Source of the DNA: Lachnospiraceae bacterium
GTDB lineage: Bacteria > Bacillota > Clostridia > Lachnospirales > Lachnospiraceae
Length of the DNA stretch: 64,000 bases
Direction: 5' to 3'
NCBI GenBank assembly: GCA_910575155.1
Contig: CAJTDX010000002.1
Location: forward strand, 1 to 64,000
This document shows, piece after piece, positions 51,966 through 57,414 of the stretch. The notes under the pieces were generated by a model. That model did no database searches. It was given only the letters and a program-made list of their open reading frames with translations, and was not told the DNA's origin. Each line of letters starts with the position of its first letter. Position 1 is the stretch's first letter. The translations under genes and the position numbers were made by a program.

Positions 51966-52038
51966 GCTGCTGTGGCTCAGTCGGTAGAGCGTCGCATTGG
52001 TAGTGCGGAGGTCACGGGTCCGATTCCCGTCAGCAGCT
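51966..52038 (+). tRNA. tRNA-Thr (GGT)
   Basis: 73 bases without CCA. Acceptor GCTGCTG pairs with CAGCAGC; the anticodon loop TTGGTAG gives GGT; T arm ACGGGTCCGATTCCCGT. It marks the left edge of the accessory segment that follows. Confidence 0.95.
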
Positions 52039-52172: not shown

Positions 52173-52219
52173 AAAAGCCCATAACTGGTGAAATTAATTT
52201 ATCAGTTGTGGGCTTTTTT
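52173..52219 (+). terminator. Terminator downstream of tRNA-Thr
   Basis: AAAAGCCCATAACTG pairs with CAGTTGTGGGCTTTT, followed by TT. Confidence 0.8.
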
Positions 52220-52389
52220 GGTGCCCGAATGAATGGGCTGCGCAGATCAGGGACTGCCAGAGCCGCCTGGCTGTCATGAGCGTTGTCGGTTGGTGTGCCA
52301 GGTTTTATATCTGTCAAGGAGACACGCTGAGGAAATTGTGAGAGTGACATAATTTTCTGGTTTATCTAGGAGAACTCGTCTGTCTGTCA

Positions 52390-52720
52390 GTATCCCCTTT
52401 TCTCTGTCCTTTCCCTTGCTTTTTCAACTGTCTTTTTACAGACACATTTTCCGGAAATTCTTTCTCAGTAAAATATAGCCTGACATCTTCCGGTAGGTTT
52501 TCTTGATTTGCCTTTGAGTCAGTACAAAATCCGCCCGTTTCTGCCGAATTTTCTTTGCAATTGCTGTTTGTGTTCCCATGGTATTTGATGTGATTATGGT
52601 TCCCTTTATGTTCAGTCAGGTAATGCAGGTAATTGCCTTGATTTCATTCGTTTTTTCTTCTACACATTTTTGTCCAAGGCAGAACCCCTTCTCACTTACT
52701 GCATTGACTAAAATGTTCAT
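52390..52720 (-). pseudogene. ISAs1-family transposase fragment, frameshifted
   Basis: Read on the minus strand across at least two frameshifts, the segment gives VSEKGFCLGQKCVEEKTNEI, then KGTIITSNTMGTQTAIAKKI and ADFVL, then LPEDVRLYFTEKEF. These are consecutive blocks of the ISAs1 (H-repeat-associated) DDE transposase catalytic core, in order. Both ends of the gene are missing and I see no terminal inverted repeats. It lies between tRNA-Thr and the AT-rich operon, evidence that this spot has received mobile DNA. Confidence 0.75.
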
Positions 52721-52767
52721 AATTTATACATTCATGCGTTTGTCGTGGCAAGAAAGCAATGATGTAT

Positions 52768-52795
52768 TTGCAAATAAGGTGGAATGTGATATAAT
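52768..52795 (+). promoter_or_regulatory. Promoter of the AT-rich operon
   Basis: TTGCAA, 16-base spacer, TATAAT, about 45 bases before the first gene. No other promoter is evident within the operon, whose genes overlap or nearly abut. Confidence 0.6.
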
Positions 52796-52838
52796 TAAAA
52801 AATTACTACCATAATTTTTGTAAAAAGGAGAAATATAT

Positions 52839-53213
52839 ATGCATGAAATAAAAAGCGTAAGTCCCAAAGTGCTTTATCCCATGACAACAATAGATTCAAT
52901 TAATCCAGATACGTTAGAAAGGGTGACTCTTGATATAAGAAATGGAACAGATATGCCAATAATTCAAGTTATTGAATTTAGAGGATATTATATCATCTGG
53001 GATGGGAATTATGAAATGATTGCAGCAAATATAATTGGAAAATCAAAAGTTAATGTCGAGGTAGTACCGTTGGAACAACAAAATAGCTGGGCTTCTGAAG
53101 AGAATATTGCCAAACAACTGGCAGCAGTGAGCATGAACGCATTATATGATTTTGAAGCATTAGGAGGATTTAATTATTCAGAATATCCTGGTTTCTATAA
53201 AGGAGGTAAATAA
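52839..53213 (+). CDS. ParB/Srx-like small protein, first gene of the island operon
   Basis: A 124-residue protein. The middle, IIQVIEFRGYYIIWDGNYE followed by MIAANIIGKSKVNVEVV, resembles the ParB N-terminal/sulfiredoxin-like fold (usual pattern: a strand with a polar turn, then DGHHR and a helix with AA), but the canonical DGHHR is DGNYE here, so catalytic activity is uncertain. The C-terminal 40 residues are unique. AAAAAGGAGAAATATAT precedes ATG 52839. Five bases separate it from the phosphoesterase gene. Base composition of this gene and the next four is clearly more AT-rich than flanking genes. Confidence 0.6.
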   Translation: MHEIKSVSPKVLYPMTTIDSINPDTLERVTLDIRNGTDMPIIQVIEFRGYYIIWDGNYEMIAANIIGKSKVNVEVVPLEQQNSWASEENIAKQLAAVSMNALYDFEALGGFNYSEYPGFYKGGK

Positions 53214-53218
53214 TTAAA

Positions 53219-55054
53219 ATGTATATTATACAAATGGCGGATTTGCACATAGGGTCCTCTGATTCGACAATACCTGCAGAGAAAGAAATTCTCTTGAAAA
53301 GTGTAGAGCTTATAAAAAAACTGATTCCCAGTGGGGAAATCGTTTTAATATGCTTATGTGGTGATATTATAGATAGTAAAGGGATGAATCCAGGATCCGA
53401 TGATCAAATCAAAGATAGATATGAAAAAGCTGAAAACCTGATCAATAAATTTAAAGCTGAAATAAAAAAAGAATACAATGTTATCATAAAATGTTGTCCA
53501 GGGAATCATGATGCAACGCATATAGATGATTTGGCGAAATTTATTTCAAATGTAGATGATGAAGATTCTAAAGATAGATTAGAAAAGTGTTATACAGTTG
53601 AAATTCAAAAGTTAGAAACTAAGATTATTTTTGTAAATTCTTGCAAAGAAAATCAACATGAAAAAGGATGTATTGATTATGATGCGCTAGAACAGGAATT
53701 AATAGATTTAGGACAAGATACTAAAAAAATTATTGTTTTGCATCATACTGTTATGAGCATGTTTGAAGAGGACAGTTCACCTATTAGAAACGCAGCGAAG
53801 CTAATCAATTTGATCGATAAATATAATGTAATAGGTGTTTTGCATGGACATATTCATGGAAGAGAAATTTTAAGTTTAGGGCAAAAGCAATGTAAAATAA
53901 TCGGAACAGGTGCATTGTTCAGCAGAAATTATAAAAATGTTAATTCACAATTTAATATTATAGAGCTTAAAAGTAATATTTTTAAAAAGATTTTAAATTG
54001 TAGATACCTTGCAGATGGTGGAAATGAGCCATGGGATGTAAAAGATTTGAAGGATTCTGGAATTAGTAGTATTTTTTCGGGAAACACTTTCTCAAATGTT
54101 TATCATCAGTTGATGGATACTTTAAACGTCATGACGCCAATTTATAATATGAGAATGGAAATTAAATCTAAATATAAAGAATTTGTTCAGGATTTGGAAG
54201 AATTTTTTAATGAAGATAAGTTAAAAATAGGAGATAATGAATGGTCATATTTTGATTTAGCAAAGATGTGGCAGGCTGATGAGGTACCAGAACAACTTTA
54301 TTTTAATCATGGCTCTTATTATAAAATGAAAGAAATGAGTGGAATCGAATATGTTATTGATATATTGAAGAAAAAGCCAACGAGCAATCGGATTGAGTTG
54401 TCGACATATAATATGGAAAATATAGAGGAATCATTGGACGATAAAAATTATTTACCATCACTTACATCGATTCAATTTGGAAAAGATGGAGAAAAACTAA
54501 TTGTTCATATGTATTTACGTGCATTAGAGGCGAAACAATTTTTAAAAATAAATATTTGTGAAATAGACTATTTGTTAAAAAAAATAAAGGATAGCGCCAT
54601 TACATTTAAAGATGTGGAAGTCGTAATATCGGCATTTAGGGTTCAGAAGATAGATAAATTTCACTGCTTTTTAAAGGCAGAAATAGATGCGATGGATGAT
54701 ACACGCCTTACTACAATTGTAAACTATAGAAAATTTTCGGAGCTTTATAAATTGATCAAAGAAAAAAAAGATGGTCAGGAAACTGTAATAAAAACGAAAG
54801 GACTTGATCAAGTTTATAAAGCAATGAAATCTTCTAATGCTGAGATGTTAGCGAGTGGAAAAAAAGAAATATATAGCAAAAATCTTATTACGCTCTTAAA
54901 AAAAGTTTTGGAAGAATATGAAAAATTGGACAGGATACATAAGAACGAATCAATTCAAAATGATAGCGGAAAAAATTATGAAAAAAATATAGATAGTTTG
55001 TTAGGAGAAATACTGCAAAGTATAAAAGAACTTGAAAAGGTGGAAACTTCATGA
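53219..55054 (+). CDS. Metallophosphoesterase fused to a thymidylate-synthase-like domain
   Basis: The 611-residue protein has an N-terminal calcineurin-like phosphoesterase (about 1-250) with all motifs: ADLHIG (Asp8, His10), CGDIID (Asp49), GNHD (95-98), HH (175-176) and GHIHG (210-214). After a helical linker, residues about 350-515 fit a thymidylate-synthase-like fold: NHGSYYKM, then LKKKPTSNRIEL, then LPSLTSIQF, MYLRALEAKQF and KINICEIDYLL. Spacing from Ser414 to Arg434 (20) and to Asn445 (31) equals that of Cys146, Arg166 and Asn177 in E. coli ThyA, but the nucleophilic Cys is Ser. The last 100 residues are helical. I infer binding of a pyrimidine nucleotide rather than dTMP synthesis. 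The stop overlaps the MazG-like start. Confidence 0.75.
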   Translation: MYIIQMADLHIGSSDSTIPAEKEILLKSVELIKKLIPSGEIVLICLCGDIIDSKGMNPGSDDQIKDRYEKAENLINKFKAEIKKEYNVIIKCCPGNHDATHIDDLAKFISNVDDEDSKDRLEKCYTVEIQKLETKIIFVNSCKENQHEKGCIDYDALEQELIDLGQDTKKIIVLHHTVMSMFEEDSSPIRNAAKLINLIDKYNVIGVLHGHIHGREILSLGQKQCKIIGTGALFSRNYKNVNSQFNIIELKSNIFKKILNCRYLADGGNEPWDVKDLKDSGISSIFSGNTFSNVYHQLMDTLNVMTPIYNMRMEIKSKYKEFVQDLEEFFNEDKLKIGDNEWSYFDLAKMWQADEVPEQLYFNHGSYYKMKEMSGIEYVIDILKKKPTSNRIELSTYNMENIEESLDDKNYLPSLTSIQFGKDGEKLIVHMYLRALEAKQFLKINICEIDYLLKKIKDSAITFKDVEVVISAFRVQKIDKFHCFLKAEIDAMDDTRLTTIVNYRKFSELYKLIKEKKDGQETVIKTKGLDQVYKAMKSSNAEMLASGKKEIYSKNLITLLKKVLEEYEKLDRIHKNESIQNDSGKNYEKNIDSLLGEILQSIKELEKVETS

Positions 55055-55413
55055 CTTTACAAGAACTAGTAGAATTTCAAAAAGAATTTGATGGTAAGCA
55101 TAAAGGAAACTTTAAATGGAATATCAAAGTTACTGATTCTAATATTGAAATGTTAGAATTTTTATTGGTTTCATTAACTGGTGAAGTAGGAGAAGTTGCT
55201 AATATCGTAAAGAAAATTGCAAGAGGTGATTTTAAATTAGAGGAAAAGAAGTCAGATATACAGGAGGAACTGGCAGATGTTTTTATATATCTTTTAAAAC
55301 TATCTTATCAGTTAGATATAGATTTAGAAAATGCTTATGTGGAAAAAATGGCAAAAAATCGAGAAAGGTTTTTAAAATATGAAAAAATTGATACAAACGG
55401 ACCAGAAGGTTAA
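55051..55413 (+). CDS. MazG-like nucleotide pyrophosphohydrolase
   Basis: A 120-residue all-helical protein with the MazG/dUTPase-2 metal motif: Glu45-x2-Glu48 in GEVGEVAN and Glu73-x2-Asp76 in EELADVF. Such enzymes convert (d)NTPs to monophosphates and pyrophosphate. It overlaps the phosphoesterase gene by four bases and the kinase gene by 35 bases, so it is an integral member of the operon. The nucleotide preference is unknown. Confidence 0.85.
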   Translation: MTLQELVEFQKEFDGKHKGNFKWNIKVTDSNIEMLEFLLVSLTGEVGEVANIVKKIARGDFKLEEKKSDIQEELADVFIYLLKLSYQLDIDLENAYVEKMAKNRERFLKYEKIDTNGPEG

Positions 55414-56032
55414 TAAAGGGAAATTTATTGCTTTTGAGGGAATTGACGGAAGCGGAAAGAGTACCCAAATTCAATTATTATCAAATAAATTAAGGGAACG
55501 GGGTATTTATTGTTATACGACAATGGAACCGACAGACTCGCCAATAGGTTCATTGATCCATCAGATAATGACTGGAAGAATTAAAACAGATAATAGAGTC
55601 ATTGCCGGTTTATTTGTTGCTGATCGGTTAGATCATTTATTAAATGATGTGGATGGAGTGTTGTCTCGTATATCGGAGGGAACAACGGTAATTACTGATC
55701 GATATTATTTCTCCTCTTACGCATATCACAGTATTGACATGCCAATGGAATGGGTAATTCAAGCAAATGCGCAAAGTAAAGAAATTCTACAGCCGACAAT
55801 TACTATTTTTATTGATGTGGATCCAGACACCGCAATTGAAAGAATTGCAAAAAATAGATTTCACCAGGAATTATTTGAAAAAAAATCAAGATTAATTAAA
55901 GTGAGGGAAAAGTATTTAGAGGCGTTCGAAAAGCTAAAGGACGAAGAGAATTATATTATTATTAATGGGAACAAATTGCAAGAAGAAATTGCGAAGGAAA
56001 TCTGGGATGGAGTAGGAAAGTATTTTAAATAA
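55379..56032 (+). CDS. Thymidylate-kinase-like nucleotide kinase
   Basis: A 217-residue P-loop kinase of the dTMP kinase family: P-loop GIDGSGKST (21-29), ADRLDHL (81-87), the DRY motif (107-109) and VDPDTAIERI. It would phosphorylate a pyrimidine monophosphate. A housekeeping tmk should exist elsewhere in the genome, so this is likely a specialised second copy. It starts within the MazG-like gene. The N-terminus before the P-loop is a little longer than usual, so the true start could be internal. Confidence 0.85.
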   Translation: MKKLIQTDQKVNKGKFIAFEGIDGSGKSTQIQLLSNKLRERGIYCYTTMEPTDSPIGSLIHQIMTGRIKTDNRVIAGLFVADRLDHLLNDVDGVLSRISEGTTVITDRYYFSSYAYHSIDMPMEWVIQANAQSKEILQPTITIFIDVDPDTAIERIAKNRFHQELFEKKSRLIKVREKYLEAFEKLKDEENYIIINGNKLQEEIAKEIWDGVGKYFK

Positions 56033-56054
56033 TTTTGAAAGAAGAAGGATAGAA

Positions 56055-56939
56055 TTGGAGATTCATTTTGAAATTGGAAATCAATGCTTATTAAAATGTA
56101 GACATTGCTCATCGATGGCATCAGAATTAAAGGAGCAAAAGAAATATCCTGAGCAGGATATGATTCAGTTGATAAAAAGTATAGAGGGAAAGAAAGATAT
56201 TTATCTAACGGGGGGAGAACCGCTTTTATACACAAATCTTGATAGGATGCTCAATAATTTGCGAATACAGATATCTGATATCAGATTGGGAATGTTTACA
56301 ACCGGTATTGTATGGGATTCAGGAGAAGCAAGGTCGATATCTGAGGAGTATGCAGGAAAATTAGCAGATTGCGATCTTAAAGTATGTTATTTATCAGTAT
56401 ACAGTCATTTAGAACAGGAACATGATTGGATGACAAGATTACAAGGATCATACAAAATGCTTAACGAATCAATATGTCATTTACAGGCTGTGGGAATTGA
56501 GACTAGATTTAATTCTGTTGTTACAAGAAAAAATATGTTTTATTTCAATGATATAATAGAGTTTGCTGAGAATATAGGAATAACAGAAGTGAGAATACTT
56601 AAGCTGATTAAACATGGAAGGGCAAAGGAGTGTTGGGATGAGATAGGCGTTACGGAGCAGTATTATAAAAACGTTATACGAAATGCCTTGAAAAGAAAAA
56701 ATAAACTTCGAATAACTGCTTCTGGAGCAATCGATATGTTATCCTGCAGGAATGATTGTAAAAGGAATATTTGTCCGGCTGGAGCAGAGTTGATCTACGT
56801 CGTCAATAATGGTGATATTTTTCCCTGTGCAAGCGTAAAAAAGAAAGCAGAATATAAAATAGGAAACATTGGTGAAATAGACATAGTAAAAAAATGGTAT
56901 ATGTTCCAAACAGAACTAAATGGGGAAATGCTTTGCTAA
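56055..56939 (+). CDS. Radical SAM protein with SPASM-like cysteines
   Basis: A 294-residue radical SAM enzyme. The cluster motif is CLLKCRHC (Cys11, Cys15, Cys18), followed by the GGEPLLY motif. Near the C-terminus a Cys-rich block (CRNDCKRNICPAG, then FPCASVKK and GNI) resembles SPASM/twitch auxiliary-cluster sites. The protein stops shortly afterwards with GEMLC, where SPASM proteins usually continue with more cysteines, so it may be 3'-truncated. Start TTG 56055 follows GAAGAAGGATAGAA. It ends the AT-rich operon. The substrate is unknown; a modified nucleotide or a peptide are both possible. Confidence 0.75.
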   Translation: MEIHFEIGNQCLLKCRHCSSMASELKEQKKYPEQDMIQLIKSIEGKKDIYLTGGEPLLYTNLDRMLNNLRIQISDIRLGMFTTGIVWDSGEARSISEEYAGKLADCDLKVCYLSVYSHLEQEHDWMTRLQGSYKMLNESICHLQAVGIETRFNSVVTRKNMFYFNDIIEFAENIGITEVRILKLIKHGRAKECWDEIGVTEQYYKNVIRNALKRKNKLRITASGAIDMLSCRNDCKRNICPAGAELIYVVNNGDIFPCASVKKKAEYKIGNIGEIDIVKKWYMFQTELNGEMLC

Positions 56940-57177
56940 TAACTCTGTCAAATTTAATGATGAATACGTGAAGACTGATAAAATAATTTCTATTTGTTTA
57001 TCATTTCTAAATATTTTATGATCTGGTTTAAAATATTTATAGATGCTCCGGGATTTAATTCTGTTAATGCGCGTACTGCCTCTATGAAATGAAGACTGAG
57101 CGAAAGCGCAGTATGTGAAATAGGACAGGAACAGACGTGGTTTTTATGAAAACTAAGCCTGATAGCGGAAGAAGGTC
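56940..57177. other. Right edge of the AT-rich island, no supported gene
   Basis: On the minus strand a start-less frame of about 60 codons ends near 56993 with a plausible-looking tail (ALTELNPGASINILNQIIKY), which may be a relic. I see no terminal repeat or duplicate of the tRNA-Thr 3' end here. Confidence 0.3.
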
Positions 57178-57206
57178 TTTACACCTTAGCCGCATATTGG
57201 TATAAT
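57178..57206 (+). promoter_or_regulatory. Promoter of ackA
   Basis: TTTACA, 17-base spacer, TATAAT. The predicted leader is about 200 bases and contains a short frame ATG...TGA of six codons (57308-57328) with GGGGGAGGAACA in front of it. Confidence 0.65.
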
Positions 57207-57414
57207 AAAACAATTGGATGGAAGGTATTTTCAGGAAAGCTGACGGGAAAGAGGACAGGTAAGGATATGATAAATCCTGTCAGAGTTTCATATACGGGGG
57301 AGGAACAATGCGAAAATACTTGATCTGAATAAATGGAAACGCATAATTTGAAAGCGCAATGTGAGAATAAAAACACTGCATAAGCTTATAAAAGAGCGCA
57401 GGAAAGGAGATAAC

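What the first reader, a model, noticed from the sequence alone, without database searches (positions are those of the whole stretch)
52839..56939. AT-rich five-gene operon joining a ParB-like protein, phosphoesterase-TS fusion, MazG, thymidylate kinase and radical SAM enzyme
The five genes share one promoter and one orientation and overlap or nearly abut. Their composition differs from both flanks, and they follow a tRNA-Thr and a dead transposase, as genomic islands often do. Four of the five products point to (deoxy)pyrimidine nucleotides. TS-like enzymes, nucleotide kinases, ParB-fold proteins and radical SAM enzymes also recur in phage thymidine-hypermodification clusters. Nucleotide kinases and pyrophosphatases recur in nucleotide-based immunity. 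I know of no named system with exactly this set, so either a new defence system or a nucleotide/DNA modification pathway is possible. The function is inference.
Basis: partly seen in the sequence, partly recalled or inferred. Interest (0 to 1): 0.85.

Follow-up and report, generated by a model that had tools for sequence, protein, structure and literature searches.

The report
Mobile nucleotide-enzyme cassette, probably anti-phage
A small mobile gene cassette, scattered among distantly related bacteria and often beside anti-virus genes, joins a phosphate-cutting enzyme to a thymidylate synthase that has lost its key cysteine, alongside other nucleotide enzymes; it probably helps bacteria fight viruses by acting on DNA building blocks.

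Summary
Five co-directional genes (52839-56939; 31.3% G+C, rest of window 44.9%) lie in a variable site between tRNA-Thr and ackA; two relatives examined lack them there. They are a real mobile unit: Petralouisia muris, same genus, has all five in order at another locus (90% DNA identity). A core of metallophosphoesterase (MPE), thymidylate-synthase-like domain (TS*) and MazG recurs in 6 of 6 cassette types found (five Bacillota, one E. coli); a radical SAM enzyme in 5, a thymidylate kinase in 3, a ParB-like protein in 2; E. coli has a Cys-bearing TS-family gene instead. TS* has Ser in place of the catalytic Cys in 6 of 6; MPE and MazG metal motifs are intact in 6 of 6. In 4 of 6 types known or candidate defence genes lie alongside (Wadjet III; type III R-M; PDC-M02/Ppl; Avs2 pieces). 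Most likely an anti-phage system acting on pyrimidine deoxynucleotides, TS* being a nucleotide-binding part that controls or feeds the MPE. Defence is inferred from context and from related MPEs validated elsewhere; the chemistry is not shown. DNA hypermodification is disfavoured. Open-access searches found no description of this set.

The parts
52231..57354 (.). Variable site between the tRNA-Thr backbone and ackA; homology to two relatives without the cassette stops at 52219/52230 and resumes at 57355/57367 (a short 57087-57252 match to one of them lies inside)
51966..52038 (+). tRNA-Thr (GGT) beside the site
52353..52748 (.). IS-like remnant: 52353-52675 repeated elsewhere in this genome (77%), 52711-52748 multi-copy in this genome and several relatives
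52767..52795 (+). Possible promoter TTTGCA-17-TATAAT with TG before the second hexamer; consensus match only, not above chance for the region
52839..53213 (+). P1, 124 aa, ParB-like by remote homology; in 2 of 6 cassette types; elsewhere the C-terminal part of (d)CMP-kinase-like proteins
53219..54028 (+). P2 N-terminal metallophosphoesterase domain; DxH, GD, GNHD, HH, GHxH motifs intact; GpdQ / SMPDL3A / Rv0805-like
54059..54661 (+). P2 thymidylate-synthase-like domain (TS*), residues about 281-481
54458..54460 (+). Codon of Ser414, aligned with the catalytic Cys146 of E. coli TS; Ser in 6 of 6 family members
54680..55051 (+). P2 C-terminal mostly helical tail, residues about 488-611
55051..55413 (+). 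P3, 120 aa, MazG-type all-alpha NTP pyrophosphohydrolase; nearest solved relatives are dCTP pyrophosphatase 1
55379..56032 (+). P4, 217 aa, thymidylate (dTMP) kinase family, over curated cut-offs
56055..56939 (+). P5, 294 aa, radical SAM protein with conserved SPASM-like C-terminal cysteines (TTG start)

Best explanation
A mobile anti-phage defence cassette that acts on pyrimidine deoxynucleotides. SHOWN by sequence: a conserved core of MPE + TS-like domain (fused or adjacent) + MazG, with a radical SAM enzyme in all five Bacillota types found, beside other defence genes in 4 of 6 types. INFERRED mechanism: MazG cleaves a pyrimidine dNTP (perhaps a phage-altered one) to dNMP + PPi; the TS-like domain, which has lost its catalytic Cys but keeps the fold and the nucleotide-contacting Arg and Asn positions, binds a pyrimidine nucleotide without methylating it, and so positions or switches on the joined MPE, which hydrolyses a nucleotide or phosphodiester and starves or stops phage DNA synthesis; the thymidylate kinase (or, in E. 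coli, the Cys-bearing TS-family protein), consecutive steps of dTTP synthesis, restore the host's dTTP; the radical SAM enzyme makes or consumes a modified nucleotide that is signal, antidote or second effector (least certain).
For: Recurrence in order: P. muris all five genes; G957 MPE-TS*/MazG/TMK/rSAM; G908 MPE-TS*/MazG/rSAM; G296 MPE/TS*/MazG/rSAM; E. coli MPE/TS*/MazG/TS. dN/dS between window and P. muris for P1 to P5: 0.28, 0.32, 0.61, 0.08, 0.16. Patchy (own genome counted each time): 1 of 250 family genomes, 2 of 398 phylum genomes after dropping three weak hits, 3 of 391 class, 1 of 392 order, 5 of 5,426 E. coli genomes, 2 of 72,556 plasmid records. Defence neighbours: Wadjet III JetA, B, C, D plus AbiL-like around G957's copy; type III Mod and a ResIII protein beside G908's; PDC-M02A/B, a Ppl-like protein and a GajB-like helicase beside G296's, Avs2-like pieces and PDC-S50 beside the one E. 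coli copy scanned. MPE kin to validated defence MPEs: E. coli copy DS9_1 6e-26, DS8 2e-18, PDC-S60 7e-16; window copy DS9_1 5.6e-10; in DS-8 and DS-9 metallophosphatase mutants lose defence (PMC13092281 section 7). Ser for Cys: the TS* profile ranks PDB C146S mutants of TS first, 6 of 6 members have it; MPE and MazG motifs intact in 6 of 6. MazG nearest dCTPP1.
Against: No activity was tested. In the window (neighbours judged by eye, not scanned with PADLOC) and on the 11.9-kb P. muris contig no defence gene was recognised. Among E. coli copies the defence neighbours are not constant: the copy in L004 is followed by IS1 and hipAB, not by Avs2 pieces. The PADLOC control is only partly reassuring: 86 proteins of six arbitrary 20-kb stretches of three genomes also matched 77 families at 1e-25 (kinases, helicases, methylases, and mad3 and mad6 models) against 87 families from 29 flank proteins (three loci, E. 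coli not included); both lists show 25 rows only. All matches to DS models are far below their cut-offs (38.7 and 91.3 of 420 bits; 65.5 of 790). The P2 model is weak (pLDDT under 50) at residues 388-391 and 394-413, just before Ser414, so the pocket cannot be read from it. The place of the radical SAM enzyme in a depletion scheme is not explained, and E. coli lacks it (there the TS gene runs into a broken ORF and an IS3 remnant, so loss is possible). P1 is missing in 4 of 6 types, TMK in 3.
Confidence: 0.5

Rival explanations
1. Viperin-like antiviral nucleotide synthesis: the radical SAM enzyme makes an altered pyrimidine nucleotide that poisons phage polymerases; kinase, MazG, MPE and TS* supply its substrate, phosphorylate it and remove excess.
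For: Radical SAM in 5 of 6 types. P5 matches PADLOC's pVip models (2e-13) and P4 its VakA and PDC-M51B models (2e-10, 8e-17). Relatives of P5 or P1 sit beside other nucleotide kinases: a (d)CMP kinase fused to a P1-like domain, followed by a radical SAM gene, and a 5-hmdU-DNA-kinase-family protein in a TIR / Nmad2 / kinase / radical SAM operon.
Against: P5 scores 37.3 bits on the NCBIfam viperin model against a cut-off of 180, and higher on several radical SAM/SPASM models (best 76.6, itself below its cut-off of 425); it carries conserved C-terminal cysteines. The E. coli type has no radical SAM gene.
Confidence: 0.22
2. Nucleotide or DNA hypermodification pathway, making modified thymidine or cytidine for the host's or a mobile element's DNA.
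Against: TS* lacks the catalytic Cys in 6 of 6; no HMUDK_hel or pyrophosphorylase family listed for the five proteins at E <= 1; no match to P2 or to the E. coli TS-like protein in 50,697 phage records, and three viral-contig scans confirmed no relative.
Confidence: 0.12
3. House-cleaning and dTTP-supply module carried by mobile elements for their own replication, with no defence role.
For: MazG, TMK and TS are housekeeping-type functions; mobile neighbours (integrase in P. muris; IS elements in E. coli). The window genome has no other PF02223 kinase, and 15 of 21 genus genomes have none at all, so an extra dTMP kinase might simply be useful.
Against: Defence genes beside 4 of 6 types; a Cys-less TS* next to a metallophosphodiesterase is not an obvious supply enzyme; no relative found in the phage collections searched.
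Confidence: 0.12
4. Chance assembly of unrelated AT-rich genes behind a tRNA.
For: Only compositional and positional observations before the comparison.
Against: Same core order in six cassette types in two phyla, and dN/dS below 1 in all five genes.
Confidence: 0.01

Closest known systems
DS-8 and DS-9 metallophosphatase defence systems (DefensePredictor, PMC13092281)
   Same: SMPDL3A/GpdQ-like dinuclear metallophosphoesterase with active-site motifs kept
   Different: DS-8 adds a NACHT domain, DS-9 a HAD phosphatase (section 7 read); here the partners are a TS-like domain, MazG, TMK or TS, radical SAM; scores far under the models' cut-offs
The validated E. coli system(s) with TS, dNMP kinase, 5-hmdU kinase and NMAD domains of the same paper
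   Same: A TS and, by the legend of its Fig. 3C, a dNMP kinase occur in experimentally validated E. coli defence systems (sections 15 and 5 read)
   Different: The gene composition is in a figure and tables I could not see, so kinship with this cassette is neither shown nor excluded
Prokaryotic viperins with nucleotide kinases (pVip / VakA)
   Same: Radical SAM beside a nucleotide kinase (in the 3 types with TMK)
   Different: P5 is below the viperin cut-off and closer to SPASM-type models; the core partners MPE, TS* and MazG are foreign to viperin loci (recalled)
Phage thymidine hypermodification clusters
   Same: TS fold, kinase, ParB-like and radical SAM occur there (recalled)
   Different: No catalytic Cys in TS*, no HMUDK_hel or pyrophosphorylase domain listed, no phage carrier found
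dCTP pyrophosphatase 1 / MazG house-cleaning enzymes
   Same: All-alpha NTP-PPase motif ExxE...ExxD; dCTPP1 is the nearest solved family
   Different: Encoded next to TS* in 6 of 6 types (and the ORF lists)

Membership tests
Thymidylate synthase (ThyA), TS-like domain of P2 | Catalytic Cys (E. coli C146) | tested here: not met
   Ser in 6 of 6 family members; profile best matches C146S mutants. The separate E. coli gene 4 does keep PCN
Thymidylate synthase (ThyA), TS-like domain of P2 | TS fold | tested here: met
Thymidylate synthase, E. coli gene 4 | Curated NCBIfam TS score | tested here: not met
   Pfam TS 110.4/24.3 but NCBIfam TS models below cut-off (93.6 of 174.55; 71 of 108.35): TS family, activity open
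Calcineurin-like metallophosphoesterase | Family match over cut-off and full metal-binding motif set | tested here: met
DS-8 / DS-9 defence systems | NCBIfam equivalog score over cut-off | tested here: not met
   DS9_1 38.7 (window) and 91.3 (E. coli) of 420 bits; DS8 65.5 (E. coli) of 790
MazG-type NTP pyrophosphohydrolase | Pfam cut-off and ExxE...ExxD motif | tested here: met
   34.0 bits, cut-off 22; motif in 6 of 6
dTMP kinase | Score over curated cut-offs and P-loop | tested here: met
   PF02223 146.8/27, TIGR00041 159.1/83.25; GIDGSGKST and DRY invariant in 3 of 3
Viperin | NCBIfam viperin model over cut-off | tested here: not met
   NF038283 37.3 of 180 bits
Viperin | Production of a ddh-nucleotide | not testable with these tools
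   needs enzymology
Radical SAM superfamily | Pfam cut-off and CxxxCxxC | tested here: met
   50.1/29.5; C11, C15, C18 invariant in 5 of 5
SPASM subfamily | C-terminal auxiliary-cluster domain | tested here: inconclusive
   C231, C240, C258, C294 invariant in 5 of 5, but Pfam SPASM 17.1 of 21.5 bits and no SPASM equivalog reaches its cut-off (25 of 54 rows shown)
ParB-like (P1) | Pfam ParB_N over cut-off | tested here: not met
   no match at E <= 1
ParB-like (P1) | Profile kinship to ParB-like domains | tested here: met
   hhalign probability 94.7, E 5.6e-8, 71 columns, against two toxin-like tails that themselves match ParB_N only weakly (E 0.004-0.005, below cut-off)
Thymidine hypermodification cluster | 5-hmdU DNA kinase or pyrophosphorylase domain in the operon | tested here: not met
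   five proteins at E <= 1
Anti-phage defence system | Recurrent location beside defence systems | tested here: met
   4 of 6 cassette types; control noisy
Anti-phage defence system | Protection against phage | not testable with these tools
   needs plating assays

The most novel reading that the evidence does not exclude
A thymidylate synthase stripped of its catalytic cysteine has become an immune sensor: it binds pyrimidine nucleotides that phages make or alter (dUMP, dTMP, 5-substituted dNMPs, delivered by MazG) and switches a fused phosphodiesterase, while a dedicated radical SAM enzyme makes a so far unknown nucleotide that acts as signal or antidote. This would be a new principle of immunity: reading the phage's hallmark DNA precursors with a dead version of the enzyme that makes them.
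Probability: 0.2. Interest if true: 0.9.

Novelty: new variant of a known kind. Interest (0 to 1): 0.64.

Why it matters
Phages depend on, and often chemically alter, thymidine and cytidine nucleotides. A widely scattered cassette pairing a Cys-less thymidylate synthase with a phosphodiesterase and a radical SAM enzyme would show that bacteria target this weak point, and would give a cloneable case (a four-gene E. coli version exists) for finding an unknown nucleotide reaction.

Tried and rejected
DNA hypermodification: rejected as first choice (Cys lost; no kinase or pyrophosphorylase domain listed; no phage carriers found). Viperin membership: rejected on the curated score, kept as a functional rival. 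Chance assembly: rejected.

Dead ends: viral-contig scans with P2, the E. coli TS-like protein, alignment A1 and P1 confirmed no relative; the phage collection gave no match for P2, the E. coli TS-like protein or P1; megablast of the cassette DNA in E. coli gave none. The single genome-contig scan confirmed only P. muris among 107 pattern matches, although G957, G908 and G296 types exist, so that scan is not sensitive; the census rests on overlapping samples of Bacillota genomes plus E. coli, plasmids and phages, and genomes of other phyla were not sampled. The AlphaFold model of P1 is poor (mean pLDDT 40.5) and was not searched. Of five hits, three were weak (E 2e-4 to 5e-4): two carry the PCH motif of ordinary TS (L009, L010), the third (L008) was not resolved; the three were dropped from the count. 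Of four P1 hits, two (L035, L036) are ParB-like tails of toxin-like proteins. The neighbour control did not separate flanks from arbitrary stretches by family count. Fold comparison: the VIA list is filled mainly by the MPE domain, so other TS-fold families are not excluded; the Foldseek viral list gave general TS, dCMP-hydroxymethylase and MPE proteins. Whether AfhB itself keeps a catalytic Cys was not determined. One search (flavin dCMP hydroxylase) found no paper.

Papers: PMC13092281: outline with abstract, sections 5, 7, 9, 15 and passages read. PMC12783734, PMC10853773 and PMC7824862: passages only. The other papers: search listing only. Three further papers on base modification are not held, so statements on hypermodification clusters are recalled. 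That the set is not described rests on the searches, in an open-access library without preprints.

Full report
WHAT IS THERE. Five + strand genes occupy 52839-56939 with gaps of 5 and 22 bp and overlaps of 4 and 35 bp. Their 31.3% G+C lies outside the range of 518 equal slices of the rest of the window (minimum 40.4%). They sit between tRNA-Thr (51966-52038) and ackA (named by eye). A DNA search of 21 genomes of the genus and pairwise alignments show that the backbone is shared up to 52219/52230 and again from 57355/57367 in G1018 and G1034. Their intervals (about 1.8 and 1.4 kb) have no DNA match to the cassette and hold only short ORFs, the longest 185 aa: a variable site. Inside it the window has an IS-like remnant (52353-52748) and then the cassette block, which matches Petralouisia muris from 52759 to 57044 at 90%. 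P. muris is Lachnospiraceae; its contig (11,889 bp) has the length of contig C4 of G1029, a genome of the window's genus. There the same five genes in the same order lie in other surroundings, beside a phage-type integrase. Between the two copies dN/dS is 0.28, 0.32, 0.61, 0.08 and 0.16 for P1 to P5, so all five appear to be maintained as proteins (weakest for the short P3).

THE CASSETTE ELSEWHERE. Six cassette types were found. (1) The window. (2) P. muris. (3) G957, same class: MPE-TS* fusion, MazG, TMK, radical SAM, and a 165-aa extra gene. (4) G908, same class: MPE-TS*, MazG, radical SAM. (5) G296, same phylum: MPE, TS*, MazG, radical SAM as separate genes. (6) E. coli: MPE, TS*, MazG and a TS-family gene with its Cys, in five chromosomes of 5,426 genomes, all five at one site next to IS remnants, and on two conjugative plasmids. 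MPE, TS* and MazG are in 6 of 6, radical SAM in 5 of 6, TMK in 3 of 6, P1 in 2 of 6. Identity of the E. coli proteins to the window is 33% (MPE), 32-35% (TS*) and 46-49% (MazG). The system is rare and patchy: 1 of 250 family genomes, 2 of 398 phylum genomes after dropping three weak hits, at least two of them ordinary TS, 3 of 391 class genomes, 1 of 392 order genomes, the window's own genome counted in each and the samples overlapping.

DEFENCE CONTEXT. G957's copy lies between jetB and jetC of a Wadjet III locus (JetA, B, C, D matches, E 8e-91 to 1e-199) with an AbiL-like ATPase. G908's copy lies beside a type III Mod-like gene and a ResIII helicase-type gene (no PADLOC match). G296's copy follows PDC-M02A/B, a Ppl-like protein and a GajB-like UvrD helicase. 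The one E. coli copy scanned (L005) is followed, behind an IS remnant, by two Avs2-like pieces and PDC-S50; another (L004) is followed by IS1 and hipAB instead. A control of 86 proteins from six arbitrary 20-kb stretches of three of these genomes also matched many PADLOC families at 1e-25 (77, against 87 from 29 flank proteins of three loci), mostly general kinases, helicases and methylases, also mad3 and mad6 models. Among the 25 rows shown of each list, only the flanks showed all members of a multi-gene system (JetABCD, PDC-M02AB). I therefore rest the claim on these systems, not on counts. The window's own neighbours look like housekeeping genes by eye and were not scanned.

HOW IT MOST LIKELY WORKS. 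Shown: gene set, order, conservation, lost Cys, intact MPE and MazG motifs, defence neighbours in 4 of 6 types. Inferred: MazG produces a pyrimidine dNMP; TS* binds it or a related nucleotide and controls the MPE; the MPE hydrolyses a nucleotide or phosphodiester to the phage's cost; TMK or TS, two consecutive steps to dTTP, refill the host's pool; the radical SAM enzyme handles a modified nucleotide. The weakest step is the radical SAM enzyme. A viperin-like reading, in which that enzyme is the effector, is the main rival; hypermodification and plain housekeeping follow.

NOVELTY. Individual domains (metallophosphatase, TS, 5-hmdU kinase; by the legend of Fig. 3C also dNMP kinase and NMAD) occur in E. 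coli defence systems validated in 2026 (PMC13092281, sections 5, 7, 15), and MazG was named there as a predicted defence domain (passage). The combination here, above all a Cys-less TS coupled to an MPE, was not found in the papers searched, but that paper's figures and tables were not readable, so a related validated system cannot be excluded.

Noticed in passing
L038:3348-8506 (NZ_OY725812.1, Parabacteroides distasonis plasmid): Operon with a ThsB-type TIR protein, an Nmad2 protein, a 5-hmdU-DNA-kinase-family protein, a radical SAM protein related to P5 and a 521-aa unknown, near an integrase: looks like another nucleotide-centred defence set.
   Followed up: partly
L037:5054-9525 (NZ_CP143950.1, Parabacteroides distasonis plasmid): AAA_28 protein, 284-aa unknown, (d)CMP kinase fused to a P1-like domain, radical SAM/SPASM, dehydrogenase: a possible further nucleotide-modifying cassette.
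   Followed up: partly
G000 and genus: 15 of 21 genomes of the genus have no PF02223 dTMP kinase match, and the window genome has only the cassette's; three others carry one beside a LacI-like regulator (by eye). The normal dTMP kinase of these bacteria may belong to another family.
   Followed up: partly
L028:777-17266 (G957): A Wadjet III locus has an AbiL-like ATPase, the cassette and an AAA-ATPase_like gene between jetB and jetC: nested defence genes.
   Followed up: no
L028:6887-7384 (G957): 165-aa protein of unknown family overlapping the end of the radical SAM gene; no NCBIfam or PADLOC match at E <= 0.001 (Pfam not scanned).
   Followed up: partly
window 52711-52748: 38-bp element with partial or full copies at 87-100% identity in many places in this genome and several relatives; probably an insertion-sequence end directly upstream of the cassette.
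   Followed up: no
L030:3587-4718 (G1018): At the same tRNA-Thr/ackA site a relative carries a 185-aa apparently membrane protein (by eye; no Pfam match) and an 86-aa ORF instead: the site may be an integration hotspot.
   Followed up: partly
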